The notes under the pieces are model-generated. The model saw only the letters and a list, made by a program, of their open reading frames with translations. It was not told where the DNA came from and did no database searches. The position numbers and the translations under genes are program-made. Positions 3,362-19,745 of a stretch of DNA of 64,000 nt are shown here, one piece after another (positions within the stretch are counted from its first letter, which is position 1; each line of letters starts with the position of its first letter). This DNA is from an uncultured Lachnospiraceae bacterium. GTDB lineage: Bacteria > Bacillota > Clostridia > Lachnospirales > Lachnospiraceae. The stretch is taken from the NCBI GenBank assembly GCA_951800685.1, contig CATOJY010000003.1, positions 1 through 64,000 on the forward strand. Direction: 5' to 3'.

Positions 3362-3391
3362 GACGCAGACAGCGCAGAAATGAGGGAAATC

Positions 3392-5317
3392 ATGAAACAA
3401 AACGTTATCCATATGTGGGATATCCACGAGATCGTTCTCCAGGCAAGTCATTCTTATGAAAACCCTTATACGGATGTGACCGTATGGGCTGACCTTAAAG
3501 GGCCTGGATTCGACAAAAGAGTATACGGATTCTGGGACGGTGATACTACTTTCCGGATTAGAGTTACTGCAACTTGCCCTGGAACCTGGACTTATGTTAC
3601 GGGTTCTTCTGTGGAAGATCCTGGTCTGTGCGGACACTCCGGCGGCTATTTTGCACTGGAATGGACGGAGGAAGAAAAGAAACAGAACGTCTGCCGTCGT
3701 GGTATCATTCGTGCTACTGCTAACGGCCATGCCATGGAATATGCTGATGGAACGCCCTATATCATGGTCGGGGATACTTGGTGGGGATTGGCCTCCTACC
3801 GCTATCCATGGGTAGACGACGAAGAAGAACGTCCAATCGGTCCTGATATGTCAATGAAAGATATGGCCAGAGTCAGACTTTCACAAGGATACAATACTGT
3901 CGGAATCATTGCCGGTTTTCCGACATGGGCCAATGATGGCAGACCGGCAGCCATCAAATTAGATGATGAACATAATACCTATGTGAGAGGTGCATGGGCC
4001 AGCTGCTCTGTTGAAGAATGGCTTCGGAACGCTAATGCACCTGCAAGAGATATGCATAATGAGGGTGGCCGTCCGTTCCTGTTTCCTGGCAAAATAGAAG
4101 GCTACGAAGACCTTGTGCCTGATTATGATAGGATCAACCCTGAATATTTTAAGGTTCTTGATAAAAAAATGAACTGGCTTAACCAGCATGGCATTACCGT
4201 GTTTATTGAAGCGCTGCGCCGTGATTCGTCCAAAACCTGGAAATATTATTACGACTGGCCAATGGTCTACACAAGATATATCCAGTATCTGTTTGCACGT
4301 TACCAAGCGAATAATATTCTTTACAGTCCGATTCATTTTGACGGTAAGCTTCAGAGTATTGACTCCAGAGAGTTCAATGAGCCGATCAATCTGATGATCG
4401 ATCTTTATGGGCAGCCTCCTTTCGGGACCCTGTTTGGCACCAATGCGCCAGGCTCCACTAAGACTGCTTACGGCGGACCAGAAGAACAACACTGGAAGAC
4501 GTTTGACCAGACAGGCAACTGGCGGGATCACCAGTTTCACTGGCTTCTCACAGACATCTTTAACGATGAGAATCCAGTTCCGGCGATCAATGGAGAACCT
4601 TATTACTCTGGTCATATTATTATTAACAGGGAAGAGGATGGCACGATGAAACGTCTTCTTTTCGGCAATATCGATAGCAAGGAAGATCATTTGAATTCCC
4701 GGTCCTCCTTCTTCGGCAGTGCTCTCTGCGGCGCATATGGCGGTATCCTTTCTGGCTATGAAGCGGGCTGGAGCGGCAATGTTGAGCCGGAAGAAACGCC
4801 TTACAAAATATGGGATACCATGACTTTCCCGGCTTCTATACAGTTCCCTTATTTCCGGGATTTCCTTCTTTCAGAAGGCAAAAGATACCAGGAATTGATA
4901 CCAGATTCAGAATTGGCATCGCCCAACTTCTGCGGCCCTACTTTCGGCTGGAGAGGCTGGATTTCCGTATCTGCTACGAAAAAACGTGATCTGGTTATGG
5001 GATTTGCAGAGAAAGATTCTCCAAAAACAAGGATCAGAGGACTGCGTCCTTATGACACTTATGAACTGACTTGGTTCAGACCAGAAACCGGTGAATGGCT
5101 TCCGGAATCAGTCATGATAGAAGTAGATAATTATGGAATGATTGCTTTACCCGATTATCCGGACGAATTTGACTGGGCCTTCAAGTTGAAAAAGTGTAAC
5201 ACAGATCTTCCAATCCATATTGATTATGTTGACAAGGCAATTGAAAACAACAGAACCAGCAGCACTGGTATGGAAAACGTTAAATTTGAATATATAGAAA
5301 CAGATTCTGTCAAATAG
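3392..5317 (+). CDS. DUF5060/DUF4038 glycoside-hydrolase-like protein (GH140-related)
   Basis: A 641-residue protein without signal peptide, so probably cytoplasmic. The first ~80 residues form a beta-rich DUF5060-type domain (YTDVTVWADLKGPG, FWDGD). The central part, about 110-500, is the DUF4038 TIM-barrel type seen in apiosidase-like enzymes (PYIMVGDTWWGL, QGYNTVG). The last ~90 residues resemble the collagen-binding-like beta domain that often ends these proteins (PYDTYELTWFRPETGEW). The ATG at 3392 is preferred over 3380 because GAGGG lies 5 nt upstream of it. It shares an operator with the binding-protein gene. Characterised GH140 enzymes release apiose from pectin; the substrate here is unknown. 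Confidence 0.8.
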   Translation: MKQNVIHMWDIHEIVLQASHSYENPYTDVTVWADLKGPGFDKRVYGFWDGDTTFRIRVTATCPGTWTYVTGSSVEDPGLCGHSGGYFALEWTEEEKKQNVCRRGIIRATANGHAMEYADGTPYIMVGDTWWGLASYRYPWVDDEEERPIGPDMSMKDMARVRLSQGYNTVGIIAGFPTWANDGRPAAIKLDDEHNTYVRGAWASCSVEEWLRNANAPARDMHNEGGRPFLFPGKIEGYEDLVPDYDRINPEYFKVLDKKMNWLNQHGITVFIEALRRDSSKTWKYYYDWPMVYTRYIQYLFARYQANNILYSPIHFDGKLQSIDSREFNEPINLMIDLYGQPPFGTLFGTNAPGSTKTAYGGPEEQHWKTFDQTGNWRDHQFHWLLTDIFNDENPVPAINGEPYYSGHIIINREEDGTMKRLLFGNIDSKEDHLNSRSSFFGSALCGAYGGILSGYEAGWSGNVEPEETPYKIWDTMTFPASIQFPYFRDFLLSEGKRYQELIPDSELASPNFCGPTFGWRGWISVSATKKRDLVMGFAEKDSPKTRIRGLRPYDTYELTWFRPETGEWLPESVMIEVDNYGMIALPDYPDEFDWAFKLKKCNTDLPIHIDYVDKAIENNRTSSTGMENVKFEYIETDSVK

Positions 5318-6658: not shown

Positions 6659-6857
6659 TCTGAACTCCTCAATTTGCATGCTGGTCTTTCCCTGGACATG
6701 CTATTCAAAAATTGTCTTAAAAACGGTTAACTGCTTTGGTACAATAATATATTAACAGTAATTTTCTGACTGTAGAAGTGACATACTATTATTCTAGTGG
6801 TTTTTGGAATATTTATCAATATTTTTGAGGCAACTTTCCCCAGATGGCTGACGCCTT

Positions 6858-6880
6858 CCCATAACAGATCTGTTTATGGG
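6858..6880. repeat. Inverted repeat downstream of the MBL-fold gene
   Basis: CCCATAA (6858-6864) and TTATGGG (6874-6880) flank CAGATCTG, giving an 11-bp arm pair with one bulge. No T-tract follows on either strand, so it may be an RNA 3'-end stabiliser or a protein site. The rest of 6659-6905 is AT-rich and presumably holds the proA promoter. Confidence 0.4.
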
Positions 6881-6905
6881 CTCCTATTCTCCTATGCCGC
6901 AAGTT

Positions 6906-7709
6906 TCACAAGTTCTGCAGCTGATAGGTAATAGAAACCCGCCCCATACGCCATAATTTGCCTTCTCCTAAATTGGAGCATATGTCTTCGCCTCTCTCTG
7001 GCCTCGTCAGGATCTGTTCCGCGCATTCTTCGTACATCTCTAGGTAATCCAGTCCCAAAGGCAGACTGTGATGACCAGGCCAGATTCTTTCAAAACGGGT
7101 TCTCCTCTCCTGCAGCGACCGTATACTCTTGAGATATTCCCTGACAGATGCCGAGTGCGTAAAGAAAAGCAGAATTCCCTGATCGCATACCGTGTCTGCT
7201 GAAAACAAATTTCTGCGTTCCCTGTCAAGGATGCATACACTTCCTATGGTATGGCCGGGAGTTGCAATCACCTCCAGGGTGCGGCTGCCAAGATCAAACA
7301 CCTGTCCGTCCATAATCTGGAAAAAGAATGGCATATCTCCTAGTTTCGCAAGTTCCTCCAGTTCTTCTTTCTTGAATGGCAGTTGGAATTCCTGTGCGAA
7401 TCCTTCCATCAGATGCTTTCGGAAAACAGGATCTGTGTGCTCCTGCAGGATTTCATGATCCGTCTGCATCATATAATACTTTTCAAACTGGCAATTTCCT
7501 CCCACATGATCCAGATGACCATGTGTGTTGATAACAATGACCGGTTTTTGGGTAAGCCTGCCCACATATTCCCTAAGCCCTGGTAATCCGATCCCTGAAT
7601 CAATCAAAACTGCCTGGGTATCGCCTTCTAACAGGTACATATAACTTTGGAAGCAGTCTTTGATCATCCATGTGTGTGCGTCGATTTGAACGGTAGAATA
7701 GAATTCCAT
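6906..7709 (-). CDS. MBL-fold metallo-hydrolase
   Basis: A 267-residue metallo-beta-lactamase-fold protein with the metal motif THGHLDHVGG (about residues 65-74) and the later ligands in ATPGHTIGSVCILD and IWPGHHSLPL. It lacks a signal peptide, so it acts in the cytoplasm. The ATG at 7709 has GGAGG 5 nt upstream; a GTG four codons earlier is the alternative. It is the last gene of an operon with an ABC sugar importer and a ChbG-type deacetylase, 59 nt after the latter. That suggests hydrolysis of an ester, lactone or thioester formed during breakdown of the imported compound. The family is too broad to name a substrate. Confidence 0.85.
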   Translation of the reverse strand: MEFYSTVQIDAHTWMIKDCFQSYMYLLEGDTQAVLIDSGIGLPGLREYVGRLTQKPVIVINTHGHLDHVGGNCQFEKYYMMQTDHEILQEHTDPVFRKHLMEGFAQEFQLPFKKEELEELAKLGDMPFFFQIMDGQVFDLGSRTLEVIATPGHTIGSVCILDRERRNLFSADTVCDQGILLFFTHSASVREYLKSIRSLQERRTRFERIWPGHHSLPLGLDYLEMYEECAEQILTRPERGEDICSNLGEGKLWRMGRVSITYQLQNL

Positions 7710-7768
7710 AGTAACCTCCACGATTAGGTTTAAACGATATCGCTAATCCATGCGTAAAATGCCCTGTT

Positions 7769-8560
7769 TTAACCAGGCTGCTTTATAAAATCCTGTGATC
7801 TGACCCGAATTGCCTCCGCCTCGTCATAGCGAAGTAATTTCACCTTATTCTCTTCACACATTCTCGCGTAGTCCTGGTTCGTCAGAAATCGGTAGTCCCT
7901 CTCCCGTGCCTGCGCAACGGTTTCCCCGCTGAAATGCTCATTGCCTGTCAAAAGCATTTCCTTTCCGTATTTGGCTGGATGCATCACAAGCAGATAGGAT
8001 CCCTCTATCTGGGAAAGCGTTTGCTTAAACAGAGAAGCATCTGATGCAAACTGGTCATTTCCTGGTATGATCTTATTATACCACTTGTGGTCAACCAGTC
8101 CTTCCTCTTTGATCAGCCTGCTCATGGCCTCACGCAGACCTGGTATAAAATTTTCCGGAAACATATGGGAATCCATATACAGAATCTCAAATCCAACATT
8201 CCGCGCCCGTTCCAGCTGGTATTTGTATTCTGTAACGATTTCCTCCAGGATAGGATTTTGTGCGGCTAACTTTTCAGGCGACTGGAAGAAAACGCCTCTG
8301 TCGTCAATCAGACTTGGAACCTTCTCTCTCGGCGCGACAGGTCCCCATACTACCCTGTCCCATTCCGAATTGATGCAGCCATGCAGTCCGAAGCAGATTT
8401 CTTTCCTGCCTGACAGCATTTCAGCCGCTTCCTCCAGATACTCTCCGCATGCCATCACAGACACATTTTTGACAAATCCGGCATCCAATGCTTCTAGAAT
8501 CGCTTGATTGGCTGCGTGGGAAGAACCACAGTCATCCGCTCTACTCAAAATTGCTCTCAT
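7769..8560 (-). CDS. ChbG/YdjC-family carbohydrate deacetylase
   Basis: A 263-residue polysaccharide-deacetylase-like protein. The N-terminal RADDCGSSHAAN carries the paired Asp of the YdjC/ChbG metal site, LHGCINSEWD gives a further His ligand region, and a later LVMHPAKYG holds another conserved His. ChbG removes an acetyl group from chitobiose and chitotriose and their phosphates; relatives act on other N- or O-acetylated sugars. It follows the permease gene by 48 nt and precedes the MBL-fold gene. This points to an importer for an acetylated oligosaccharide. The exact substrate is unknown. An AAGGTG ribosome site precedes the ATG. Confidence 0.85.
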   Translation of the reverse strand: MRAILSRADDCGSSHAANQAILEALDAGFVKNVSVMACGEYLEEAAEMLSGRKEICFGLHGCINSEWDRVVWGPVAPREKVPSLIDDRGVFFQSPEKLAAQNPILEEIVTEYKYQLERARNVGFEILYMDSHMFPENFIPGLREAMSRLIKEEGLVDHKWYNKIIPGNDQFASDASLFKQTLSQIEGSYLLVMHPAKYGKEMLLTGNEHFSGETVAQARERDYRFLTNQDYARMCEENKVKLLRYDEAEAIRVRSQDFIKQPG

Positions 8561-8608
8561 ATCTGCACCTTCTTTCTAAATCGCTCTTATACAGAAGACC
8601 TTCCACAC

Positions 8609-9457
8609 TCATCCCTTCACAGCGCCGTCTGCCATCCCCTTGATGATCTGCTTCTGAAAAAGAAGAAAGAAGACAAGCGCCGGTAAGATTGATAGTACCA
8701 GTGCCGGCATGATCAGATCCCACCGGTTCAGATAGGTACCGTAAAATACGCTCATAGATAACTGGATGGTCTTTAACCTCTCTGAATTGATCATAATCAA
8801 CGGCAGCATAAAGTCATTGAATACGCCAAGTATATTGATGATCGCCACTGTCGCCGTAATTGGTTTTAAGATTGGAAATACCACATAAAAGAAAGCCCTG
8901 AACTGACCACACCCATCGATCATCGCGGCCTCTTCCAGATCTTTGGGAACGCCTTTTATAAATCCGCAGTACAGAAAGACCGCCATTGGAAGAAGAAATC
9001 CCCAATACATGAAGATCATACCATATAGCGTATTTACAATATGCAGACTTCTTGCCACGATCACCACCGGCACCATCAATACCTGGAAAGGAATTGCCAT
9101 CGTGAAGAGAATTCCATAATAGATCACATTGCTTATCCTGTTCTTGACTCTTGTCACTTTATAAGCTGCCATAGAGGCAAAGAGAACAATGCCTGCCACT
9201 GACAAAACGGAGACGAGTACGGTATTGCCGAATTTTAGCAAAAAGTTCATTTTTGCAATCGCTTCCCGATAGTTCCCGAAGCTTAATCCTGTTGGAAGTG
9301 CAAGCATATCTGACAGGATCTCTCCATTGCTCTTAAAGCTGTTGATCAAGATGAGCAGCATTGGAAATACTACAAAGCACGCTGCCAAGGTAAGGATAAT
9401 TTCTATCATAAAAAGGCCCAGACCATATTTTTCTTTTGTTGTCGTTTGTTTTTTCAT
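8609..9457 (-). CDS. Carbohydrate ABC transporter permease, MalG/UgpE type
   Basis: The second membrane subunit of a CUT1 importer, 282 residues with six predicted transmembrane segments. The EAA loop, EAAMIDGCGQFRAFFYVVFPILKP, is present at about two thirds of the length and would contact the ATPase. It ends with the family-typical KQIIKGMADGAVKG. The start ATG overlaps the TGA of the upstream permease by one base, which implies translational coupling. No MsmX-like ATPase is encoded nearby, so a shared ATPase is likely, as in many Firmicute CUT1 systems. Confidence 0.95.
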   Translation of the reverse strand: MKKQTTTKEKYGLGLFMIEIILTLAACFVVFPMLLILINSFKSNGEILSDMLALPTGLSFGNYREAIAKMNFLLKFGNTVLVSVLSVAGIVLFASMAAYKVTRVKNRISNVIYYGILFTMAIPFQVLMVPVVIVARSLHIVNTLYGMIFMYWGFLLPMAVFLYCGFIKGVPKDLEEAAMIDGCGQFRAFFYVVFPILKPITATVAIINILGVFNDFMLPLIMINSERLKTIQLSMSVFYGTYLNRWDLIMPALVLSILPALVFFLLFQKQIIKGMADGAVKG

Positions 9458-10347
9458 CACATCTCTACCTCTTTTCTTCTTGTTACCCTCACCTGTGCAA
9501 TCGCTACGATTCCAATCACGATGGAGAAAATAACTGCTTTTGCGGAAGCATAGGATAATTGGTCTGCGTTAAACGCATCCAGAAAGATCTGGTAAGCGAT
9601 CGTCTTTGTTGTGCCATACGGACCGCCGGTTGTGAGCGAATAGTTCAGGTCGAATGCTTTTAGGCTGTTTACGATACTCAAAAACAGACAGATCGTGATG
9701 GAAGGACGGATCAAAGGAAGAATGATCTTAAAAAAACACGCCTTTGCGCCTGCCCCATCGATCTTCGCCGCTTCCAGAATATCCGACGGAACGTTCTGTA
9801 AGCCGGCAAGATAAATGATCATATAGTAGCCCGTTCCCTGCCATAGGCTGACGATGACCAACGATAAAAATGCTGTAACAGGATAGGCCAGCCAGTTTTT
9901 CTCGAAGATTCCAATTCCAACAGTCTTACCCATATATGGCATAAAGGTACCGATGATAAAATTCCACAAATATCCTACTGTTGCAGTTCCGATCACAATC
10001 GGCATAAAGTAAACTGCCCGAAGAATCCCTTTCAGCTTCAGGTTCCTGTTTAGCAATATTGCCAGCATAAGACCTAAAATATTGTAACTTATGACCATAA
10101 CCAACGCATACTTCAAGGTAAATCCAATGGTGCCCACAAATGCTTTATCCGATAATGCATTGCTGTAATTTCTGATCCCTACAAAATGAGAGCTGATACT
10201 GATACCATTCCAGTCACGGAAGGAATAATAGATTCCAATGAAAAGCGGCACAAATACAAAGAGTATGGTGAGCAGAATTGCCGGTGCCACAAATACAGTA
10301 TAGATCAGATTGTTTTTTGTTTTAAGGGTGGTCCTGTCTGTATTCAT
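9457..10347 (-). CDS. Sugar ABC transporter permease, MalF/UgpA type
   Basis: The first membrane subunit of the same CUT1 importer, 296 residues with six transmembrane segments and an EAA loop (EAAKIDGAGAKACFFKIILP). The ATG at 10347 has GAGGAG 6 nt upstream; the frame stays open 35 codons further, but that extension looks non-coding. It lies 65 nt after the binding-protein gene and is coupled to the next permease. Confidence 0.95.
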   Translation of the reverse strand: MNTDRTTLKTKNNLIYTVFVAPAILLTILFVFVPLFIGIYYSFRDWNGISISSHFVGIRNYSNALSDKAFVGTIGFTLKYALVMVISYNILGLMLAILLNRNLKLKGILRAVYFMPIVIGTATVGYLWNFIIGTFMPYMGKTVGIGIFEKNWLAYPVTAFLSLVIVSLWQGTGYYMIIYLAGLQNVPSDILEAAKIDGAGAKACFFKIILPLIRPSITICLFLSIVNSLKAFDLNYSLTTGGPYGTTKTIAYQIFLDAFNADQLSYASAKAVIFSIVIGIVAIAQVRVTRRKEVEM

Positions 10348-10412
10348 TCTTTTCTCCTCGAATAGGAAAACTGCTATGATTTTTGCGCACAGCAGTCTTC
10401 CTGTTGCTGTAT

Positions 10413-11720
10413 TTATTCGGTTACAGAAGAAGATGCTGCTCTGCTGTCCCACAACTGTTGCAGCGCTGTGCAGGTTGCTCCTCTGTCAGATGCGCCTGCC
10501 GCATAGGCCTGCAGTGGTTCCGCCTGGTCTGTATTAAATCCAGAAGGCCATTCCTCCACGCCAAATCCGTCAAAGGCCATCCCATCAGCCACATAACGGT
10601 TCATATCGATATTCAATGCACCAAGTTCTGACACATCCAGCGTATCATAGGGCGCAACAATGCTCATCTGTTCGATCATGTATTCCTGTGCGTGGTCTAC
10701 AAACCACTGTAAAAAATCCTTAGCCGCTTCTTCCTGTTTGGAAGTATTGGAAATACTCAAAAATCTTGTGGTCGATACCTGAAGCTTCGTCTGGCTGGCA
10801 TCATCTGTCAGCGGAACCGCGAACAATCCAATGTTCATATCGGGATTGATACTGGCGATCGTATCGGTATGCCAGGTTCCCTGTTTGATCATGGCGATTT
10901 CTCCCTTTGCGAAAGAATTTGCCTGATCGTCATAATGATATCCCACAGATTCAACGCCCCATCCATAATCCAGGGTCAGATCATAGAAATTAAAGAAATC
11001 ATCCATATACTTCATATCAGAAAAGCTTTCTTCTTTAGCGGACAGCCTTTGTGCGGTTTCCGAAGCGCCTTCGTAGGTAAAGGGAATCCCCAGGATATGC
11101 ATCAGAAATCCCCAATCGCCCCATGCCTCTCCAAATGGCTGGATCCCTGCACTCTGCAATTTCTCACATACCTCTTCCAGTTCGCTGATCGTCTGTGGAA
11201 TCTCTGTGATTCCTGCCTGCTCGAATAGATCCTTATTATAAATGATCCCACTGCCCTCCATTGCATAGGGAAGGCCATATACTTTTCCTTCCCAGGATCC
11301 GCCGTTTAAAGAAGCTTCGTATACATGTTCTGTCCATGATTCTCCGGAAAGATCTACACATCTCTCATACCAGGTATCATAATCGCCACACTGCAGATCA
11401 ATGATATCCGGCGCTTCTCCGGAGGCAAACCGTGCCTTTAATACCGTGTATGGCTCATCACCTGGAATCTCCCATTCCAGTGTGACTCCTGTCTCTTCTT
11501 TGTAATCCTGGCAGAGTTTCTCTACCATATCTGTATATTGTGCCGTTCCCTGGTACACAGTCAGTACAATATCCTCGTCTTTTTCTGTGCTGTTCCCAGC
11601 CGCTTCCTTCCCATCTCCCGGCTCTGTCGTCTCACCTTGTGCAGTGTTGCCGCATGCTGTAAGAAGTGATACGATCATCGTCATTGCTGTAAGATACGGC
11701 GCTATTTTTCTGGCTTTCAT
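10413..11720 (-). CDS. Sugar ABC transporter substrate-binding lipoprotein, family 1
   Basis: A 435-residue extracellular binding protein. The signal peptide ends in the lipobox LTAC (Cys at about residue 23), followed by a Thr/Glu/Asp/Gly linker. The rest is SBP_bac_1-like, with TVYQGTAQYTDMVEKL and the GSGIIYNKDLFEQAGI stretch common to sugar binders. The ATG at 11720 is supported by GGAGG 7 nt upstream. It is the first gene of an operon with two permeases, the deacetylase and the MBL-fold protein. A direct-repeat element with a matched -10 lies upstream at 11788-11853, next to the YesMN genes that probably control it. Confidence 0.95.
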   Translation of the reverse strand: MKARKIAPYLTAMTMIVSLLTACGNTAQGETTEPGDGKEAAGNSTEKDEDIVLTVYQGTAQYTDMVEKLCQDYKEETGVTLEWEIPGDEPYTVLKARFASGEAPDIIDLQCGDYDTWYERCVDLSGESWTEHVYEASLNGGSWEGKVYGLPYAMEGSGIIYNKDLFEQAGITEIPQTISELEEVCEKLQSAGIQPFGEAWGDWGFLMHILGIPFTYEGASETAQRLSAKEESFSDMKYMDDFFNFYDLTLDYGWGVESVGYHYDDQANSFAKGEIAMIKQGTWHTDTIASINPDMNIGLFAVPLTDDASQTKLQVSTTRFLSISNTSKQEEAAKDFLQWFVDHAQEYMIEQMSIVAPYDTLDVSELGALNIDMNRYVADGMAFDGFGVEEWPSGFNTDQAEPLQAYAAGASDRGATCTALQQLWDSRAASSSVTE

Positions 11721-11787
11721 ATTATTTCCTCCATCGTTCGAATATTTGTTCACAGGTCTTAGTATTTATCTCCTGTCTGATAATTTC

Positions 11788-11793
11788 ATTCTA
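11788..11793 (-). promoter_or_regulatory. -10 box of the ABC/deacetylase operon
   Basis: TAGAAT on the minus strand, 32 nt beyond the proximal half-site at 11826. The kinase gene shows TAAAAT 31 nt beyond its own half-site. Neither has a good -35, as expected for activator-dependent promoters. Confidence 0.5.
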
Positions 11794-11825
11794 AGCTCTG
11801 TGCAGCAATCTCTCTACGGAAGATC

Positions 11826-11853
11826 CGAACCACTTTCCAGCACAATTTGAAAC
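11826..11853 (-). promoter_or_regulatory. Direct-repeat activator site upstream of the ABC operon
   Basis: On the minus strand the element reads GTTTCA-N16-GGTTCG, two half-sites 22 bp apart. The inner part includes CAGCAC (plus-strand sense, 11838-11843). The element upstream of the histidine kinase gene (15209-15236) has the same half-sites, the same spacing and the same CAGCAC at the same place. Two helical turns between half-sites suits an AraC-type response regulator dimer. Confidence 0.65.
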
Positions 11854-11858
11854 TTTAT

Positions 11859-12542
11859 CTATTCAGAGCGTTCTCTTCTATACTGTGCAGGTGATTGACC
11901 AGTGTACTTCTTAAAGACTCTTCCGAAATAATTCTCATCTTCATAACCGACGATCTCTCCGACCTGGGCCACACTTTTTTCTCCGGCTTTAAGCAGCTCA
12001 CATGCCTTTTCCATGCGTACTTCCATAATCGAATTGACAACCGTCTTATGATATTTCGCCTTAAAAATACGCGCCACATATTGAGGAGTCTGGTAGAAAT
12101 CTGCTGCGATCGTAGAAAGCGTGATATTTTCAGCATAATGTTCTTTGATATAAGAATAAATTCTGTCTGCTGGTTCCTCTTTGCTCCTGAAACTGCTCAT
12201 AAGGGTATCTAGGCGTTTCAACGTTTCCATTTCCCACAGATCAATATCATTGATCCACAAAGACAATGGTTCCAGTTTGTTGTCCTGTTCCTGCTGGGAG
12301 GCGATTCTGTGCAGCAGCAGATTCATATCTGCAGTACAGTTTTGCAGTTCCTGCAGCCTTAAGTCGGTACTCTTTAAAGAAAGACAGTAATCTTCTATGA
12401 TTTCCCGTAGTCTATCGCCATCTTTCTGCCTCATTGCACTTACAATACGCAGCTCCAGAGTGAGTACACTATTTCTCTGTACAGTATCTGGTTCTATTAC
12501 AGAAGCAGGCATACTGCAGCCCCAGACATTTCGCTGCCGCAA
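11859..12542 (-). CDS. YesN-like response regulator, C-terminal AraC DNA-binding fragment
   Basis: This is the downstream part of a broken gene. It carries the end of the central domain and a complete AraC-type double helix-turn-helix (NITLSTIAADFYQTPQYVARIFK and VAQVGEIVGYEDENYFGRVFKK, ending TGQSPAQYRRE). It is in the same frame as the receiver fragment and separated from it only by TAA at 12555-12557 and four codons. No ribosome site precedes the TTG at 12542 or the ATG at 12512, so independent translation is doubtful. The DNA-binding part looks undamaged, so the break is recent, suppressed, or a base error in the sequence. Confidence 0.8.
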   Translation of the reverse strand: MRQRNVWGCSMPASVIEPDTVQRNSVLTLELRIVSAMRQKDGDRLREIIEDYCLSLKSTDLRLQELQNCTADMNLLLHRIASQQEQDNKLEPLSLWINDIDLWEMETLKRLDTLMSSFRSKEEPADRIYSYIKEHYAENITLSTIAADFYQTPQYVARIFKAKYHKTVVNSIMEVRMEKACELLKAGEKSVAQVGEIVGYEDENYFGRVFKKYTGQSPAQYRRERSE

Positions 12543-12554
12543 AAGCCCGTTCTG

Positions 12555-13400
12555 TTAATGGATTGTTCTTCCTAGATCTAATAAGGACACAGGCTCCAGG
12601 CTCACTACAAAGGTAATGTCAAGCCCGATCGTATTTTTGATCTTCTTCTCGAAGATTTTCATCTTTTCTGTCACTCTAAAAGGATTTGCCTCGTTCTCCT
12701 GCAGGAAAAACTGCCAATTAAAATCATCGATTGCAATCTCCTGTTTAAATAGATAAGTTTTGAAAACATCCCGCAAGACATTTCCTATTGTAAAAAAGAA
12801 GAGATCCTTGTCGCCTTCATACCGCTCTTCTATGATCGCTCCCGCATTCCGGTTTAGAACAGACACTAGTAAGAAACGCTCTTCTTTGGATGCTCCTAAC
12901 TTCCCAAAAGCCGACAGTATCTGTTCTGATGCAACGTTTTCTTCTCTGCAGAAATTTTGCAGTACCTGAACTGCCATAGCAAGTCCCATCTGTTCATGCT
13001 GCCTGTTCTTGACAGCATCTTCCTTTTCCCCCTGGATTCTCATAATTGCTTTTTCTATTGCATTTACTAATGTCTCCCGGTTAAACGGTTTTAGAATATA
13101 GTCGACACCATTAGCCAGTAAGGCCGCGTGCACATACTGGAAATCACTGTAGCCGCTGATCGCGACCACCTGAATTCTGATTTGTCTTTCCACAATCTCA
13201 TGCAGAAGTTCCCTGCCGCCCATTACCGGCATTTCCATATCACAGAGCAGAAGTTTCGGTTTCCTGTCTTCGATGATCTGCAGAGCCTCCTTTCCGTTTT
13301 GCGCATAGAAGACCTCTGTTACGCCATAATTCTCCCAATCGATCATGAATTCAATGGCTTCCCGCATGTGAATTTCATCATCAGCAATTATCACTCTCAT
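12555..13400 (-). CDS. YesN-like response regulator, N-terminal receiver fragment
   Basis: The first 281 residues of a response regulator: receiver domain with acidic pair D7/D8, phospho-acceptor D54 (LLCDMEMP) and Lys in DYILKPF, then the central domain usual in YesN-type proteins. The frame ends at TAA (12555-12557), but the same frame continues with an intact AraC-type domain. A CAA to TAA change would restore a 512-residue protein, the usual size. The start overlaps the end of the kinase gene by 20 nt, the normal yesM-yesN coupling. As it stands the product can be phosphorylated but cannot bind DNA. Confidence 0.85.
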   Translation of the reverse strand: MRVIIADDEIHMREAIEFMIDWENYGVTEVFYAQNGKEALQIIEDRKPKLLLCDMEMPVMGGRELLHEIVERQIRIQVVAISGYSDFQYVHAALLANGVDYILKPFNRETLVNAIEKAIMRIQGEKEDAVKNRQHEQMGLAMAVQVLQNFCREENVASEQILSAFGKLGASKEERFLLVSVLNRNAGAIIEERYEGDKDLFFFTIGNVLRDVFKTYLFKQEIAIDDFNWQFFLQENEANPFRVTEKMKIFEKKIKNTIGLDITFVVSLEPVSLLDLGRTIH

Positions 13401-15138
13401 GATGTTCCCTTTCTTTTCCTTTCAAAACCACAAGTTCAACCATCGTCTCCACTTCTGGAATACTTCTGATCTCCCAGCGGAATCTTTCCCCATAATAGAT
13501 ACTGCATCGCTGCAACACATTCAACAAGCCAATTCCATGATCTGAATTAGACAGAAACCCATAGTTGTCATAATCCTCTTTCAACTTTTGGATCTGCTCT
13601 GCACGCATGCCGGCTCCATTGTCAATAACACGGATCAGATATTGCTCTGCTTTCTCCACGATGGAGATCATGATATTTCCCATACCGTCTTTTTGGTCTA
13701 TTCCGTGTTTAATACTGTTTTCTACGGGCGGTTGAAGGATCATCTTGGGGATCAGCAGACTGCCGGTTTTCTCTGAACAGTGTATGATAAAATGCAGCCG
13801 GCCGGCAAACCGCCCTTCCTGTAGTGCAATGTAATTCTCCAGATGTCTTAATTCTTTCTTGAGCGTAACAACATCATCTCCGGTGTTCATTGTATACTGG
13901 AACAGTTCTCCAAGTTGTGTCAGCTGCCTTGACACTTCCGGGCAATGTCCTTTTAAAGCGGTGGTACTGATATATTGCAGCATATTGTATAGAAAATGCG
14001 GATTGATCTGTGCCTGCAGCATATGAAACCGGGATCTTGTGACTTCTAATTGATAACGGTAATTCTTGTTAATTAATTCATCCAAGCTTGTCATCATCTC
14101 TGCATACTGATTTTCCAACATACCAAGTTCGTCTTTTCGGTTTGTCTCAGATTTGTATACAAATTCCGGTTTCTGTTTGACCATTTTCATATTGTGCAGC
14201 ATCCTTCTGACTGGGGAAATGAACAGATTAAACACCAGAAAAAGAAATAAGACCGATACTGCCAGTAGACAGCCCTGTACTGCGATCGCTCCAAGCACCA
14301 CCCGCTTTGCAGGATCCGCAAACCAGTGGTCATGCACGAACATAAGAAGCCGGATCTCTGTCCCCTTATAGAAATCCCTTTTCAGAAAAAACATGCCCTC
14401 TGCACCGTCAAGCCTGCCCTTCGCATATTGGTGATCTAGAAGCGCTTTTTCATCGTAGTCTGCCTCCAGAAAAGGAACGGATGTGTAAGCCAGTTCTTTC
14501 CCACCTTCTCCTAAGTATGCCATCACGGCGCTATCCTTATATTGCCCACATAGTGTCTCAGCTAAATCCTGCATCTCCTTGTTATCCACGTAGATGCGCA
14601 TGCTTACTATCGTGTCATAAGCTGGTACGTTCTGGAGATCCGCATGGTAGATGAGAAATGCTGGTTTTTTGGCTTCATCTTTTCCCACCTGAAACATTTC
14701 TCCGTTTGGTTCCGGATCCTGGTATTGGCCAATTCTTTTTCTATTATGGTCATCGGCATAGATTCCTTCAATGATTTCTCCGTTTTGGCAGTACATGACA
14801 ACACGAAATACGGAAGAATTCCTGTCGCTGACAGATTTTCCATAGTTACGGATCACATAACGCTCCATATCGGTAAAAGGCGTTTGGAGACTCAAGATCC
14901 TGACCACATCTGGATGTTCATATAAGTTCAGCGGCGCCTGTTCAATCTGCCTGATCTTCCCTTTGGCCTGCTCCATGCCAATCTCCATCCTGTTCTCATT
15001 CCAGTCAATGATCTGCTGCTGGATCATATAATAATTCTGCCGGTATGCTATCACATTGGATACAATACTCGGCAGAATGATAACCAGCATCACTAACAGG
15101 ATTAGCTTCGAAAAAAGACTGTTTCTGATTTTCTCCAT
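13381..15138 (-). CDS. YesM-like sensor histidine kinase
   Basis: A 585-residue membrane kinase. A transmembrane helix at about 8-30, an extracellular sensor region of about 250 residues, a second helix at about 281-308, then a HAMP-like segment. The His_kinase domain has QAQINPHFLYNML with phospho-acceptor H381, and the ATP-binding part shows N (PVENSIKHG), DNGAGM and HGIGLLNV. This is the sugar-sensing kinase type usually paired with a YesN regulator and a CUT1 importer. Both lie downstream. GAGGG precedes the ATG by 7 nt. A direct-repeat element at 15209-15236 suggests autoregulation. Confidence 0.95.
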   Translation of the reverse strand: MEKIRNSLFSKLILLVMLVIILPSIVSNVIAYRQNYYMIQQQIIDWNENRMEIGMEQAKGKIRQIEQAPLNLYEHPDVVRILSLQTPFTDMERYVIRNYGKSVSDRNSSVFRVVMYCQNGEIIEGIYADDHNRKRIGQYQDPEPNGEMFQVGKDEAKKPAFLIYHADLQNVPAYDTIVSMRIYVDNKEMQDLAETLCGQYKDSAVMAYLGEGGKELAYTSVPFLEADYDEKALLDHQYAKGRLDGAEGMFFLKRDFYKGTEIRLLMFVHDHWFADPAKRVVLGAIAVQGCLLAVSVLFLFLVFNLFISPVRRMLHNMKMVKQKPEFVYKSETNRKDELGMLENQYAEMMTSLDELINKNYRYQLEVTRSRFHMLQAQINPHFLYNMLQYISTTALKGHCPEVSRQLTQLGELFQYTMNTGDDVVTLKKELRHLENYIALQEGRFAGRLHFIIHCSEKTGSLLIPKMILQPPVENSIKHGIDQKDGMGNIMISIVEKAEQYLIRVIDNGAGMRAEQIQKLKEDYDNYGFLSNSDHGIGLLNVLQRCSIYYGERFRWEIRSIPEVETMVELVVLKGKEREHHESDNC

Positions 15139-15171
15139 GGCAATACCCTCTGCATATCATAAATGATGTCC

Positions 15172-15177
15172 ATTTTA
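15172..15177 (-). promoter_or_regulatory. -10 box of the kinase gene
   Basis: TAAAAT on the minus strand, 31 nt beyond the proximal half-site at 15209. The distance matches the ABC operon promoter within one base. The -35 position (about 15200-15195) is poor, and it falls within the terminator of the preceding gene. Confidence 0.45.
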
Positions 15178-15186
15178 TCACATTAC

Positions 15187-15241
15187 ACACAAAAAACCAG
15201 GGACAATCTGAACCTGATTTCAGCACGATTTGAACCCTGGT
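15187..15241 (-). terminator. Intrinsic terminator of the GT39-like gene
   Basis: On the minus strand, ACCAGGG (15241-15235) pairs with CCCTGGT (15202-15196), followed by TTTTTTGTGTG. The gene ending at 15252 lies directly upstream. The 32-nt loop contains the direct-repeat regulatory element of the kinase gene, so terminator and operator are nested. Confidence 0.75.
15209..15236 (-). promoter_or_regulatory. Direct-repeat activator site upstream of the kinase gene
   Basis: TGAACC (15209-15214) and TGAACC (15231-15236) on the plus strand, that is GGTTCA-N16-GGTTCA on the coding strand. CAGCAC lies between them at 15221-15226. It aligns without gaps with the element at 11826-11853. The likely binder is the YesN-like regulator. 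Confidence 0.65.
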
Positions 15242-15251
15242 AATATTTGTT

Positions 15252-17459
15252 CTATTCTATCGTTTCCTGCAGCGGGATCACCACAAACTCTGTCTTTTCC
15301 TTCCCTGTAAGCCCAGCCGCCAGCTTGCGTGTCACGCTTTCCTTGTACTCGCCGGATTCTAACATCGCTTCGGCAAACTCCGCGCGGATGCACAGATGGT
15401 CGGAACCATAATAGGTGTTCTGCAGATCCGCAAACTCATCTCCCGGTGTGATCATTCCTTCCACCACATCTGGACGATAATAGGAAGAGCGGAAATCAAT
15501 ATCGTTAAAGATGATCACTGACTTTTGTGGAACTCCCTGATAGGCCGTTTCCCACTGTTCTTCCAGCGCAAGATAATAATTATCTTTCCGGTCCATGCCG
15601 CCGTTTGCAAAGACAGACCAGACTGCAGCAAACACAAGCAATGTCACCATTCCTGCAAAGTAACGAAATCCCTTTGTGCCCCGGAGATAAGGGAGTAGGA
15701 GTCCAATCAAGGCAATGCACAACAGGAATGTTGCTGGTTCGAAGAAACGGAAATAGAAACTGTCCATGGAAGACACATACCGGATGCCGATAAAGACCAC
15801 ATCATAGACCACCGCCGTAACGATCAATACAGACTCTCTTGTAAAGCGCCTGCAGTTTGCAGCGATCAGCCAGCCAATCCCAGCCAGAATACCTACTACC
15901 GCAAACACCTTGATCTGATACGGGAATCCCTCTATCAACTCCGGAATCTGCATGGAAAAGATATTGAAAAATTCCGTCAACAGACTCTCGATCAGGTCGT
16001 CCGTCAGGATCCTGTAATCATCCCACCACATGGTACGGCTTACGCCGGATGCCATGCCGTTCTTCACTTTATTTACAAAAAGATAAGCTAGACTTAAGAT
16101 ACCGGATATAAAAGCGGTGGCCGTCAATCTGACAAGTTTGGACAAGTCGGCCTGCATTTTTTTGCGCCGGTAGGCGGCAAACAGGGCAAGCAGATAACAT
16201 CCCACCACAATCCAAACGAAGACTCCGTAATATCTTGTCAAAAAACAACATAATCCCATAATGCCTAAAGAGATATACCAGCCAATCGATGACTGCTCTT
16301 CCCGCAGTATCTTTGCTAAAATCAGAGCAAAACAGAAGAGAAACAAAATAAAAGGAATTTCACTCCATGTATAGTAGCTCAGATTCAGATAACCGATATT
16401 GGTCAGGCACAGGCTATACAGCCAGGCGTCTTTGCCAAAGCATCTGCGCATCAGCAACAGAAGAAGGCCGGCAGTCAGCATTGCCACGATCTTGGATGCC
16501 AGATAAGCCTCTGTACCAGTGACAAGCATCACGGCTGCAATCAACACAGGATATAGGATGGGCCAGTTGGCGAACCAGGTATCATATCCTGCAAGTCCAT
16601 CATAAGAGAATCCATTGCCTGCTGCAAGATTGACTGCTTCCCGCAGATATCCTGTAGAATCCGCAGAAATATAAGCGCCTTTCAGATAAGCCCTGGAATA
16701 GATACTGATACAGATAGTACCGAATAAAATCAGCAGAAAAAGATCACTGCCGTGTTTTTTGGCGAAGATATCAAATCTGCTTTGGGCATGACAGACCACT
16801 GTCCATATTCTCTGCCATCCTGCCCAGATACAGAGCAGACCCACAGCAGCAAACAGGAAAGAAAGAGGTACCGAATAATAAAAAATATCTCCATAGGTGA
16901 TGCGGATTGGTTCTACCCGGTTAATTCCCATAGAAATACCACACTCCAGCACTTCCCCGTTCTTGATGACTTGTTCATAGAAAGGCAGCAAATCTCCTTT
17001 TTCGGCGGGCACCTGCATAAAATACGGGGAACTTCCGTCTGCAAAAACAGAGATCCGATATGTCTGTCCAGCTATAAAAGAGGCCTCTCCTGAAATTAGA
17101 AACCATTTCCCTGGAGTGATCGTCTCTACCGGAATCACCTGATTCATAAGAACATTGGACGAGTCATCCGTCAACGTAAAGCGCACGGTACCTCTGCTGT
17201 CCTGTGCAATATTTACCAGAAGAACCTGAAATCCGCTGCTTTGGAAATCCTCTTTTGCCGTCAGAGAGACTTCTAATGTCTCGCCTTTCTCACAAGTGAC
17301 ATATACCGGATCTGGGTTGATCTGTGGCAGAATCTCTGTTGTCGCCATTCCGTTCTGTGCTGTATGTGTCAGTACAAGCATAACTGCGCCCAACAAGATA
17401 CACACAATAAAGCTATAGATTATTTTTCTAATGATTGCTTTTTTCATTTGAATAACCAT
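15252..17459 (-). CDS. GT39-like polytopic membrane glycosyltransferase
   Basis: A 735-residue membrane protein. After one N-terminal helix there is a beta-rich extracytoplasmic part (about 35-190), then about ten transmembrane helices. The first loop of the helical part has the acidic stretch SADSTGYLREAVNLAAGNG, at the place where GT39/PMT-type enzymes hold their catalytic acids. Such enzymes move a sugar from a lipid carrier to a target outside the membrane. It follows genes for a flavoprotein and a GT2 enzyme that could make the lipid-linked donor. Start choice is open: ATG at 17459 or 17447, neither with a good ribosome site. The acceptor is unknown. Confidence 0.75.
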   Translation of the reverse strand: MVIQMKKAIIRKIIYSFIVCILLGAVMLVLTHTAQNGMATTEILPQINPDPVYVTCEKGETLEVSLTAKEDFQSSGFQVLLVNIAQDSRGTVRFTLTDDSSNVLMNQVIPVETITPGKWFLISGEASFIAGQTYRISVFADGSSPYFMQVPAEKGDLLPFYEQVIKNGEVLECGISMGINRVEPIRITYGDIFYYSVPLSFLFAAVGLLCIWAGWQRIWTVVCHAQSRFDIFAKKHGSDLFLLILFGTICISIYSRAYLKGAYISADSTGYLREAVNLAAGNGFSYDGLAGYDTWFANWPILYPVLIAAVMLVTGTEAYLASKIVAMLTAGLLLLLMRRCFGKDAWLYSLCLTNIGYLNLSYYTWSEIPFILFLFCFALILAKILREEQSSIGWYISLGIMGLCCFLTRYYGVFVWIVVGCYLLALFAAYRRKKMQADLSKLVRLTATAFISGILSLAYLFVNKVKNGMASGVSRTMWWDDYRILTDDLIESLLTEFFNIFSMQIPELIEGFPYQIKVFAVVGILAGIGWLIAANCRRFTRESVLIVTAVVYDVVFIGIRYVSSMDSFYFRFFEPATFLLCIALIGLLLPYLRGTKGFRYFAGMVTLLVFAAVWSVFANGGMDRKDNYYLALEEQWETAYQGVPQKSVIIFNDIDFRSSYYRPDVVEGMITPGDEFADLQNTYYGSDHLCIRAEFAEAMLESGEYKESVTRKLAAGLTGKEKTEFVVIPLQETIE

Positions 17460-17571
17460 GCCTTTCTATTCAACCTGCAAGGCTGCAGTTACAACACATA
17501 AGCCTGTAGTCTATCTTTTATCCAGGACACTTTCCAAAGTGCAGTCCTCATCAATACGAAATTCCCTGGAG

Positions 17572-18876
17572 TCACACATGTATGATCCTATCGGCAAGGC
17601 GCATCGCGAGATCCACTACCACATCGGAATTATAGTGGCAGTGTTCCCCCCAGCGTCCCAGCCCATAAATCTGTCTTGTCCTGCAGAAGGCAAGCAGCTT
17701 TGCCATTATTTCCGGCTTACCGACAGTATTCAACGGATATGCATACGAATTCAAATAATGATATTCTTCCTCTTGCCCTGTGTTCGTTATACCCAGATCA
17801 CATGTATAGCGCTTCTCGTTCGCATATTCTGAGACACCTGGAAGTTTTAACGCAGCATCCTTGAACAAGTCCGTCCGCTCTTTTCTTGTTTCCAGCCAGT
17901 AGCCTCTGCTTCCTAGACAGAAATTATGCCTAACGAGGATCCTGTGCCATGGAAGACACAGATCCGGCTCATAAATCCACTGGGCCGCAGTATCCAGACG
18001 TTTTGGCACATACCGTATCTCTATGGCGTTGGATTTCAGGCTGGATATTAACGCTTTGATCTGTTCCGGCATACCGACGATCTGTTCGAAACTTTGCCAA
18101 GGAACTGTAGTGATCACAGTTTCCGCTTCGAATAGTTCTCCTGTCCTTGTCTTGACCCGGCGATTCTCACAATCCAGCATAACAACTTCCGCTCCGTATA
18201 TTACTTTCGGCGAAAGCGCCTCTGCCATACGGAGCCACACTTCCCCATAGCCGTGTTTCCTTGGGTAATAGAAGGACGCATGTCCTGGCTGTGTTCCATA
18301 GGGTTTATGGGTCAGACAAGATAACAATGTCTCCTCGAAGTTTACATTCGGAAGTTTCTCCAGCCAGTATGTCCCCAATTCGTCCAATTCATCCGCAAAC
18401 ATCTTCTGATTATAGGGAATCATGTAGTGATCGGCGACCCGTTTCCCAAGCTTCCAGGTGATCCATTCCACAAAACGCTCCGGCATAGGCTGATCCAGAT
18501 TACAGCCTGCCTTTGCAATCGAAGTCAGGTATGCTACCTGTTCCTGCAGGTCAAATTGCCAGATATTCGCTTCCAATGGGTGGCTGATTTCCCTTCCGCT
18601 CATCCAGATGCGGCTGTCCCGCTCAAAGAGCGACCACTCTTCCTTTGGCATAAACTGAAAGAGAAACGAAGTAACTTCCGGCCTTCTGACATCCAAAAAA
18701 TGTCCGCCTCCCAGATCCAATGGGCTGCCATCTACACAAACGCAGCGGCACAAGCCGCCCGCTTCTTCTTCCTTTTCCAACAGCAGAAAAGACGTTTCTC
18801 CCCGCTCCTTTAACCGGTGCGCCAGCGTAAGTCCAGATGGCCCGGCCCCTAAAATCAGATACTTTATTTTTTCCAT
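17572..18876 (-). CDS. FAD-dependent oxidoreductase, protoporphyrinogen-oxidase/UDP-galactopyranose-mutase-like
   Basis: A 434-residue flavoprotein with an N-terminal dinucleotide fold (LILGAGPSGLTLAHRL), followed by LLEKEEEAGGLCR and LGGGHFLD as in amine-oxidase and UGM-type enzymes. The central YYPRKHGYGEVWLRM resembles the PxxGxG region of this superfamily. The C terminus, IYGLGRWGEHCHYNSDVVVDLAMRLAD, closes the FAD fold. It lies between GT2 and GT39-like genes, so a sugar-nucleotide or lipid-linked sugar substrate is likelier than a porphyrin; no other heme gene is near. AGGA precedes the ATG. Confidence 0.75.
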   Translation of the reverse strand: MEKIKYLILGAGPSGLTLAHRLKERGETSFLLLEKEEEAGGLCRCVCVDGSPLDLGGGHFLDVRRPEVTSFLFQFMPKEEWSLFERDSRIWMSGREISHPLEANIWQFDLQEQVAYLTSIAKAGCNLDQPMPERFVEWITWKLGKRVADHYMIPYNQKMFADELDELGTYWLEKLPNVNFEETLLSCLTHKPYGTQPGHASFYYPRKHGYGEVWLRMAEALSPKVIYGAEVVMLDCENRRVKTRTGELFEAETVITTVPWQSFEQIVGMPEQIKALISSLKSNAIEIRYVPKRLDTAAQWIYEPDLCLPWHRILVRHNFCLGSRGYWLETRKERTDLFKDAALKLPGVSEYANEKRYTCDLGITNTGQEEEYHYLNSYAYPLNTVGKPEIMAKLLAFCRTRQIYGLGRWGEHCHYNSDVVVDLAMRLADRIIHV

Positions 18877-18914
18877 GTTGATAATCCTGTTTCTCTTTGC
18901 CCTTATTGAAACTC

Positions 18915-19643
18915 CTAATGTCGTCCAGACTGTGATGAAGTGATGCAGCGCTCGTTTTTCTTTAACTTAAATAGCAGACGAAGTGCTTCCAGAACAGAAC
19001 TGCCTTTCAGACTGGATGCAGTTCCTACATAATGAATAGGCACTTCGATTGTCCGTAAATTCCTGCAGTAAAAACGCATTTCCGTCTGATACATATGTCC
19101 GGTAGACAAAAACGCATCTAAGTTCATGCGTTCTAACACGCTGCATTTAAAACACTCAAATCCACTGGTCATATCTTTGAGTCTGGTTCCCAACACAAAA
19201 TTGGCAAGAAAAGTACCGCCCTGGCTTAGAATACGCCTGTAAAAAGGCTGTTCCCGCATGGATCCGCCTTTCATAAAGCGGGATCCCCACACACAGTCAT
19301 AGCCTTCCTCCATCTTCTCAAGAAACTGCGGTATTTCAGATGGCATATGGCTTCCGCCACCGTCCATTTCCAGAATCTGTTCCGCCCCGTCTGCCAGTGC
19401 CTGGCGGAACCCTTCCAGATAACAGCTGATGACACCCTTTGATTCCTTATAAAAAATACATTTCACCCGGTCGCTTTCTGCCGCCTTCTTACGAATAATT
19501 TCTTCTGTCCTATCCTTGGAATAGCTGTCTACTACCGGGTAAATAAATAAATTGTCATAAGGAAGCGCCAAAATTTCCTCTAAGATCTGTTCCATAGTCG
19601 ACTCTTCATTGGCTACCGGCATAACGATAATTGTTTTCTTCAT
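18915..19643 (-). CDS. Glycosyltransferase family 2 (polyprenyl-phosphate sugar synthase-like)
   Basis: A 242-residue GT-A enzyme. It begins IIVMPVANEESTMEQIL, has YPVVDSYSKDRTEEII, and a central EMDGGGSHMPSEIP at the DxD position. It has no long C-terminal membrane domain. This matches dolichol-phosphate-mannose-synthase-like proteins, which charge a polyprenyl phosphate with one sugar. With the downstream flavoprotein and GT39-like gene it forms a three-gene module that could decorate a surface polymer or protein. GAGGGG lies 5 nt before the ATG. Confidence 0.85.
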   Translation of the reverse strand: MKKTIIVMPVANEESTMEQILEEILALPYDNLFIYPVVDSYSKDRTEEIIRKKAAESDRVKCIFYKESKGVISCYLEGFRQALADGAEQILEMDGGGSHMPSEIPQFLEKMEEGYDCVWGSRFMKGGSMREQPFYRRILSQGGTFLANFVLGTRLKDMTSGFECFKCSVLERMNLDAFLSTGHMYQTEMRFYCRNLRTIEVPIHYVGTASSLKGSSVLEALRLLFKLKKNERCITSSQSGRH

Positions 19644-19745
19644 AATATCCCCTCATATGTAATGGCTGATCAATCGAGAATGCCAAATCTTACAGACATT
19701 CACGCTAACACACAAATATCATTTCTACAAAAAATATGCGTAGTA

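What the first reader, a model, noticed from the sequence alone, without database searches (positions are those of the whole stretch)
11788..15236. Matched GGTTCA-N16-GGTTCA elements before the kinase gene and the ABC operon
Plus-strand sites 15209-15236 (TGAACC-N16-TGAACC) and 11826-11853 (CGAACC-N16-TGAAAC) have half-sites exactly 22 bp apart and share CAGCAC at the same inner position. A -10 box lies 31 or 32 nt beyond the proximal half-site in each case (TAAAAT 15177-15172, TAGAAT 11793-11788). Both promoters lack a good -35. This is what an AraC-type response regulator that activates its own kinase gene and its target operon should look like.
Basis: partly seen in the sequence, partly recalled or inferred. 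Interest (0 to 1): 0.72.

Follow-up and report, generated by a model that had tools for sequence, protein, structure and literature searches.

The report
Paired operators of a sugar-uptake switch
Two matching DNA elements, one before a sensor-kinase gene and one before a sugar-import operon, look like docking sites where a two-component regulator switches on both itself and its transporter: a well-supported prediction of an ordinary kind, not yet shown by experiment.

Summary
The two minus-strand elements match at 24 of 31 positions (27 of 36); 0 of 2000 shuffles reach either value. In the 3.88-Mb genome only these two places fit their consensus with up to 3 mismatches. The unit is longer than reported: about 16 bp (GGTTCARATYGTSCYK), twice, 22 bp apart, with the -10 box 37 or 38 nt from the start of the proximal copy. 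That is the geometry of an AraC-type activator at promoters with a poor -35. In three congeners another kinase/ABC locus carries a different 22-bp tandem, with a -10 at 38 nt. Best reading: operators of the YesN-type response regulator encoded between them. The kind is known; binding is inferred.

The parts
15221..15236 (-). operator 1, distal half-site GGTTCAAATCGTGCTG
   Evidence: 24/31 match with operator 2, 0 of 2000 shuffles; genome scans
15199..15214 (-). operator 1, proximal half-site GGTTCAGATTGTCCCT, 22 bp from the distal one, reaching the -35 position
15172..15177 (-). -10 box TAAAAT of the predicted kinase promoter, 37 nt from the proximal half-site start
15191..15241 (-). intrinsic terminator of the upstream gene: stem 15241-15235 / 15202-15196, T run 15196-15191; most of operator 1 lies within it
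   Evidence: -17 to -18 kcal/mol, z -2.98 and -3.31; not listed, which allows loops of 3-8 only
13381..15138 (-). YesM/LytS-type sensor histidine kinase, 585 aa
   Evidence: PF06580 E 1.4e-22, PF02518
12555..13400 (-). receiver part of the YesN-type response regulator, ending at an in-frame stop
   Evidence: PF00072 E 1.7e-24; translation
11859..12542 (-). AraC-type DNA-binding part of the same regulator, same frame after the stop
   Evidence: PF12833 E 3.5e-18, PF00165; homologue P0121 is one 513-aa chain
11838..11853 (-). operator 2, distal half-site GTTTCAAATTGTGCTG
11816..11831 (-). operator 2, proximal half-site GGTTCGGATCTTCCGT
11788..11793 (-). -10 box TAGAAT of the predicted ABC-operon promoter, 38 nt from the proximal half-site start; weak -35 TAGAGA at 17 bp
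10413..11753 (-). sugar-binding lipoprotein of an ABC importer; likely true start ATG at 11720 after GGAGG
   Evidence: PF01547, PF13416; best solved relatives are sugar-binding proteins; start judged
9457..10452 (-). ABC permease 1
   Evidence: PF00528
8609..9460 (-). ABC permease 2
   Evidence: PF00528
7769..8560 (-). YdjC-like carbohydrate deacetylase
   Evidence: PF04794
6906..7721 (-). metallo-beta-lactamase-fold hydrolase
   Evidence: PF00753

Best explanation
The two elements are operators of the YesN-type response regulator encoded between them. Each holds two direct-repeat half-sites of about 16 bp, 22 bp apart, one AraC-type HTH domain per half-site. The proximal half-site ends where a -35 box would begin, so the phosphorylated dimer would stand in for the missing or weak -35 and recruit RNA polymerase to the -10. 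One operator drives the kinase-regulator genes (positive autoregulation), the other the sugar ABC importer operon with YdjC and the hydrolase. Shown: the elements, their likeness, rarity, spacing and gene context. Inferred: which protein binds, the sign (activation), the role of phosphorylation, and the substrate (an oligosaccharide). In this genome the regulator gene has an in-frame stop, so the circuit may be silent here while working in close relatives.
For: 24/31 match, 0 of 2000 shuffles. Only two such places in the genome; none with 0 or 1 mismatch in 24 congeners, in which this kinase was not found either. Gene families. -10 at 37 and 38 nt from the proximal half-site start. In three congeners another kinase/ABC locus has a 22-bp tandem in the divergent intergenic region, 31 of 38 columns invariant against 50 of 278 alignment columns outside (many of these gapped), with -10 boxes TACAAT, TATAAT and TATACT at 38 nt. 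In 634 intergenic promoter gaps of loci with YesM-type kinases, 14-bp repeats with 11 or more matches number 24 at lag 21 against 6.7 (sd 3.2, maximum 13) at other lags; coding windows show 20 at lag 21, the same as at lag 18. PMC8579813 (passages): in C. bescii three of five two-component regulators with AraC-type domains have tandem repeats with large spacers upstream of the promoter, taken as activators. Ten binding-protein clusters and ten regulator clusters list the same longest-contig lengths, and so do nine kinase and nine regulator clusters. 26 of 41 regulator hits are full-length homologues within the orthologous set.
Against: No binding or expression data. No orthologous DNA was found, so conservation of these very sites is untested. 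The two halves of operator 2 agree at only 8 of 16 positions by eye (operator 1: 11 of 16), and lag 22 is not among the four best lags in that stretch. As a group, gaps next to kinase/ABC genes in 20 loci were not richer in lag-20-to-23 repeats than other gaps (3 of 40 against 5 of 78 at p up to 0.05; 2 against 1 at p up to 0.01). In the wider survey the lag-21 excess was not confined to binding-protein (4 of 44 regions) or kinase promoters (3 of 72): other promoters had 21 of 516. Lag 22, the lag seen here, was only mildly raised (14). The half-site register in the congeners was chosen by me after the fact, and L128 has an equally good -10 candidate at 31 nt. The regulator is interrupted in this assembly.
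Confidence: 0.75

Rival explanations
1. The elements are operators, but of another DNA-binding protein of the genome, with the local regulator dead because of its stop.
For: The regulator gene carries an in-frame stop here.
Against: Only two such sites were found in the genome, both at this cluster; a global regulator would be expected to have more. The tandem spacing fits the local AraC-type domain. An intact near-identical regulator is known.
Confidence: 0.1
2. Element 1 is mainly an intrinsic terminator of the upstream membrane-protein gene; its likeness to element 2 is coincidence or descent.
For: Stem ACCAGGG/CCCUGGU with a T run, -17 to -18 kcal/mol, z about -3, beginning 10 nt after the stop codon.
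Against: Most of the 31-bp likeness lies inside the outer stem, not in its arms, and element 2 folds no better than shuffles (z -0.07 and 0.18). The terminator and operator readings are compatible.
Confidence: 0.08
3. The two elements are direct repeats left by insertion or recombination of the kinase-regulator module.
For: They flank that module as direct repeats, and the whole cluster is a 13-kb insert relative to the 8 congeners examined.
Against: The insert's ends are elsewhere (between the 5-formyltetrahydrofolate cyclo-ligase gene and proA). The likeness is patterned as half-sites, each pair with a -10 at matching distance. No recombinase appears among the genes annotated (the 735-aa membrane protein had no NCBIfam match and was not run against Pfam).
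Confidence: 0.04
4. An RNA element (riboswitch or attenuator) in the leaders.
For: Element 1 folds as RNA.
Against: No Rfam match up to E 1 in 11000-18000; both elements lie upstream of the predicted -10, outside the leader; element 2 has no stable fold.
Confidence: 0.03

Closest known systems
Two-component systems with AraC-type regulators next to carbohydrate ABC importers in Firmicutes (AviRS, MosSQ, BxgRS of Caldicellulosiruptor bescii, PMC8579813; passages seen)
   Same: Kinase, AraC-type response regulator and importer in one cluster; tandem-repeat sites upstream of the promoter reported for three of five; predicted activation
   Different: I did not see their site letters, so no comparison of sequence; here operator 1 sits inside a terminator and the regulator gene is interrupted; no expression data
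CuaDSR of Ruminiclostridium cellulolyticum (PMC10384115; abstract and passages seen)
   Same: YesN/AraC-family regulator with its sensor, inducing a sugar ABC operon
   Different: The sensor operon is described there as constitutively expressed; here the kinase gene has the same element as the target operon
XydS/XydR of Clostridium cellulolyticum (PMC3572039; passages seen)
   Same: AraC-type response regulator; its two target regions share direct repeats and homologies at predicted -35 boxes
AraC of Escherichia coli at araI1-I2 (recalled, from no call)
   Same: Two direct-repeat half-sites about 21 bp apart, the proximal one overlapping the -35
   Different: One-component arabinose sensor; 21 rather than 22 bp

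Membership tests
YesN-type (AraC-family) response regulator system | Receiver domain with phospho-acceptor Asp | tested here: met
   PF00072; D54 invariant in the 26 aligned homologues
YesN-type (AraC-family) response regulator system | C-terminal AraC-type HTH | tested here: met
   PF12833 and PF00165
YesN-type (AraC-family) response regulator system | Both domains in one chain | tested here: not met
   In-frame stop at codon 282 in this genome; met in homologues, including P0121, which differs at two positions
YesN-type (AraC-family) response regulator system | Partner kinase of the YesM/LytS type | tested here: met
   PF06580 E 1.4e-22
AraC-type tandem operator | Two direct-repeat half-sites about 21 bp apart (recalled criterion) | tested here: met
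   22 bp; 11 of 16 identical in operator 1, only 8 of 16 in operator 2 (by eye)
AraC-type tandem operator | Proximal half-site at the -35 of a promoter with a poor -35 (recalled criterion) | tested here: met
   Geometry; the promoters themselves are predictions
AraC-type tandem operator | Same site at several promoters of one regulon, rare elsewhere | tested here: met
   Two sites, both here
AraC-type tandem operator | Conserved before orthologous genes | tested here: inconclusive
AraC-type tandem operator | Bound by the regulator | not testable with these tools
   Needs gel shift or footprint
Intrinsic terminator (element 1) | Stable G+C-rich stem followed by a T run | tested here: met

The most novel reading that the evidence does not exclude
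YesN-type response regulators of these Firmicutes share one spacing rule whatever their half-site letters: two half-sites of about 16 bp at a 21- or 22-bp lag, with the -10 at 37 or 38 nt from the start of the proximal half-site. At the kinase gene the operator is folded into the upstream gene's terminator, so that binding of the regulator and read-through from upstream could influence each other.
Probability: 0.25. Interest if true: 0.5.

Novelty: new member of a known kind. Interest (0 to 1): 0.34.

Why it matters
Kinases of this type are numerous (this genome had 10 matches to the kinase, itself included), and two papers seen in part report no clear site: the XydR paper says that no consensus could be identified for the AraC/XylS family, and the pneumococcal study found no clear repeat motif for YesN. 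A testable site with a spacing rule would let targets of such regulators be predicted from sequence.

Tried and rejected
Orthologous loci: the kinase or the natural homologue P0131 of the regulator was sought in 61, 392, 397, 77, 396, 245 and 396 genomes; the sets overlap, and each includes the window's own genome. At the strict cut-offs only the own genome matched; searches scored at most 3 candidates per genome and at most 5. In one search (E up to 0.001) 49 of 61 genomes matched, but the listed matches outside the window's own kinase were distant (25 to 37% identity; the list is cut). A single sequence might have served better there. Viral contigs gave nothing.

Chance matches looked at and dropped: 56158(-) with 22/31 to element 2 and 58436(+) with 20/31 to element 1 are inside reading frames. 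The repeat finder did not list the pair among the 20 families shown of 32; by eye it shares no exact 9-base seed.

Group tests: one search did not favour the reading (3 of 40 against 5 of 78), and one search showed the lag-21 excess spread over all promoters. One search compared 206 promoter pairs in 20 loci; only pairs with 23 or more of 36 matches were shuffled (60 times each), and 11 pairs passed p up to 0.034, against about 7 expected if all had been tested by chance; I did not pursue the L134 and L138 pairs. One search showed a lag-21 excess mixed with triplet periodicity, hence the stricter. For the regulator alignment I used 26 of 41 hits, leaving out three partial ones (P0139, P0148, P0149) and twelve distant ones (P0150-P0161).
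Full report
What is there. Reading the minus strand, the stretch before the kinase gene holds GGTTCAAATCGTGCTGAAATCAGGTTCAGATTGTCC (15236-15201), and the stretch before the sugar-binding-protein gene holds GTTTCAAATTGTGCTGGAAAGTGGTTCGGATCTTCC (11853-11818) (both printed). The match is 24 of 31 and 27 of 36; 0 of 2000 dinucleotide-preserving shuffles of the two upstream stretches reach either value, the shuffle maxima being 21 and 26. The consensus with up to 3 mismatches finds only these two places in the window's genome (3,884,860 bases, 111 contigs, about 95% complete), control 0. The looser tandem pattern finds these two at 0 mismatches and five places at 3, control 1. In a 25-genome search with up to 2 mismatches, the 24 congeners had no place with 0 or 1 mismatch and 9 places with 2, in 6 genomes; the reversed control pattern had 3. 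The consensus was derived from the two elements, so these scans test rarity; the shuffle test is the one for likeness.

The unit. The reported hexamers and the shared CAGCAC are parts of a half-site of about 16 bp, present four times: GGTTCAAATCGTGCTG, GGTTCAGATTGTCCCT, GTTTCAAATTGTGCTG, GGTTCGGATCTTCCGT (summary GGTTCARATYGTSCYK, by eye). The two halves of operator 1 agree at 11 of 16 positions, those of operator 2 at 8 of 16 (by eye), so the second tandem rests largely on its likeness to the first; in that stretch lag 22 is not among the four best lags. The -10 boxes start 37 and 38 nt from the start of the proximal half-site. A 17-bp spacer would put the -35 at 15200-15195 and 11816-11811, that is, at the very end of the proximal half-sites. 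The kinase promoter has no listed -35; the ABC promoter has TAGAGA.

Operator 1 and the terminator. The kinase's upstream neighbour, a 735-aa membrane protein on the same strand, ends at 15252. ACCAGGG (15241-15235) pairs with CCCUGGU (15202-15196), followed by a run of six T (15196-15191). The fold is -18 kcal/mol in a 61-nt stretch (z -2.98) and -17 in 50 nt (z -3.31). Operator 1 fills the interior and part of both arms. Element 2 has no such fold (z -0.07 and 0.18). The simple terminator scan did not list it, because it allows loops of 3 to 8 nt only. No Rfam family matches 11000-18000 up to E 1.

Genes. Kinase: PF06580 and PF02518. Regulator: PF00072, then PF12833/PF00165, with an in-frame stop at codon 282 of 513. 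ABC importer: PF01547/PF13416 and two PF00528; YdjC PF04794; PF00753. The binding protein's best solved relatives are sugar-binding proteins, the top one (9xor) named a maltose-binding protein; its best NCBIfam hit is the diacetylchitobiose-binding NgcE, far below that model's cut-off (63 against 399.65), so the substrate is not assigned. An intact near-identical regulator exists: P0121 (513 aa; its cluster holds 4 sequences on 4 contigs, no source named) differs from the window's translation at residue 49 and at the stop position. I infer that the stop is particular to this genome or to this assembly.

Setting. In the 8 congeners examined (8 of 8) the 5-formyltetrahydrofolate cyclo-ligase gene is followed directly by proA; here about 13 kb lie between them, holding three glycan-type genes, the kinase and regulator, the importer, YdjC and the hydrolase. 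None of the 76 other genomes of the genus that were searched has this kinase at E up to 1e-70. Base composition is not distinct. The cluster is thus accessory and may have been acquired.

Relatives. Kinase orthologues at 53-75% identity and regulator orthologues at 49-74% exist, mostly from metagenome assemblies. Ten binding-protein clusters (P0163, P0164, P0166, P0167, P0168, P0169, P0170, P0172, P0175, P0176; of 73 hits) list the same longest-contig length as a regulator cluster (P0122, P0135, P0134, P0142, P0141, P0138, P0140, P0144, P0145, P0143; of 41 hits). Nine kinase clusters (P0002, P0004, P0006, P0011, P0013, P0015, P0016, P0017, P0020) do so with P0128, P0127, P0130, P0123, P0135, P0136, P0140, P0141 and P0146. 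One contig shared by regulator and binding protein would be only 3,426 bp long, so the two must be close neighbours there. Equal contig length is strong but indirect evidence for one contig. The receiver and HTH regions are better kept than the linker (mean 71.6% and 71.1% against 57.6%).

A rule of spacing. Because orthologous DNA was missing, I looked at other kinases of the type. In three congeners (L128, L129, L135; kinases 71-83% identical to one another) the divergent region between kinase and importer has a tandem of GTTTGGAAATTTCC type at lag 22. There 31 of 38 columns are invariant, against 50 of 278 alignment columns outside, many of which are gapped. The -10 of the importer operon lies at 38 nt from the proximal half-site start in all three (TACAAT, TATAAT, TATACT), against 37 and 38 in the window; L128 also has an equally good candidate at 31 nt. 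I chose the register of the half-site there by analogy, so the exact equality is partly of my making; the lag, and the constancy of the distance among the three, are not. Across 634 intergenic promoter gaps in loci with YesM-type kinases, 14-bp repeats with at least 11 matches number 24 at lag 21 and 14 at lag 22, against 6.7 (sd 3.2, maximum 13) at other lags; coding windows show only triplet periodicity (20, 20 and 18 at lags 18, 21 and 24). Against this: in 20 loci, gaps next to kinase or ABC genes were not richer in such repeats than other gaps (3 of 40 against 5 of 78 at p up to 0.05), and the lag-21 excess in the wider survey was spread over all promoters (binding protein 4 of 44, kinase 3 of 72, other 21 of 516).

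What is known. I saw passages of PMC8579813, PMC11034029, PMC3572039 and PMC10766802, and the abstract and passages of PMC10384115. The first says that in C. bescii all four single-component AraC regulators and three of five two-component ones have tandem repeats with large spacers upstream of promoter elements, suggesting activation. That is the kind this finding belongs to. In CuaDSR the sensor operon is described as constitutively expressed; here the kinase gene carries the operator, which suggests positive autoregulation. The 21-bp spacing of araI1-I2 and its overlap with the -35 are recalled, from no call; a search for a citable source found nothing.

Verdict. The most likely reading, at about 0.75, is a pair of operators of the local YesN-type regulator, activating its own kinase gene and the importer. 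It is a new member of a known kind, with two touches that stand out: the operator within a terminator, and a regulator that is interrupted in this genome.

Noticed in passing
6680-19745: A block of about 13 kb lies between the 5-formyltetrahydrofolate cyclo-ligase gene and proA; in the 8 congeners examined (8 of 8) these two are neighbours. No recombinase among its genes annotated.
   Followed up: partly
12555-12557: In-frame stop between the receiver and DNA-binding parts of the response regulator; an intact near-identical copy exists in public data.
   Followed up: partly
15252-19643: A polyprenyl-phosphate-type glycosyltransferase, an FAD oxidoreductase with a weak match to UDP-galactopyranose mutase and a 735-aa membrane protein without an NCBIfam match stand together upstream of the kinase; possibly a surface-glycan module.
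   Followed up: no
3380-5317: Apiosidase-like glycoside hydrolase (PF16586 DUF5060, PF13204) on the opposite strand, downstream of proA.
   Followed up: no
L134 5094-5332 and 11526-11780; L138 7257-7420 and 14531-14755: In two congeners a matched CACCATTTT-type element stands before the binding-protein gene and before another gene of a kinase/ABC locus; it may be a further matched operator pair.
   Followed up: no
L002 1501-1528: The only other GGTTCA-N16-GGTTCA of the genome is inside a tRNA-Met gene.
   Followed up: yes
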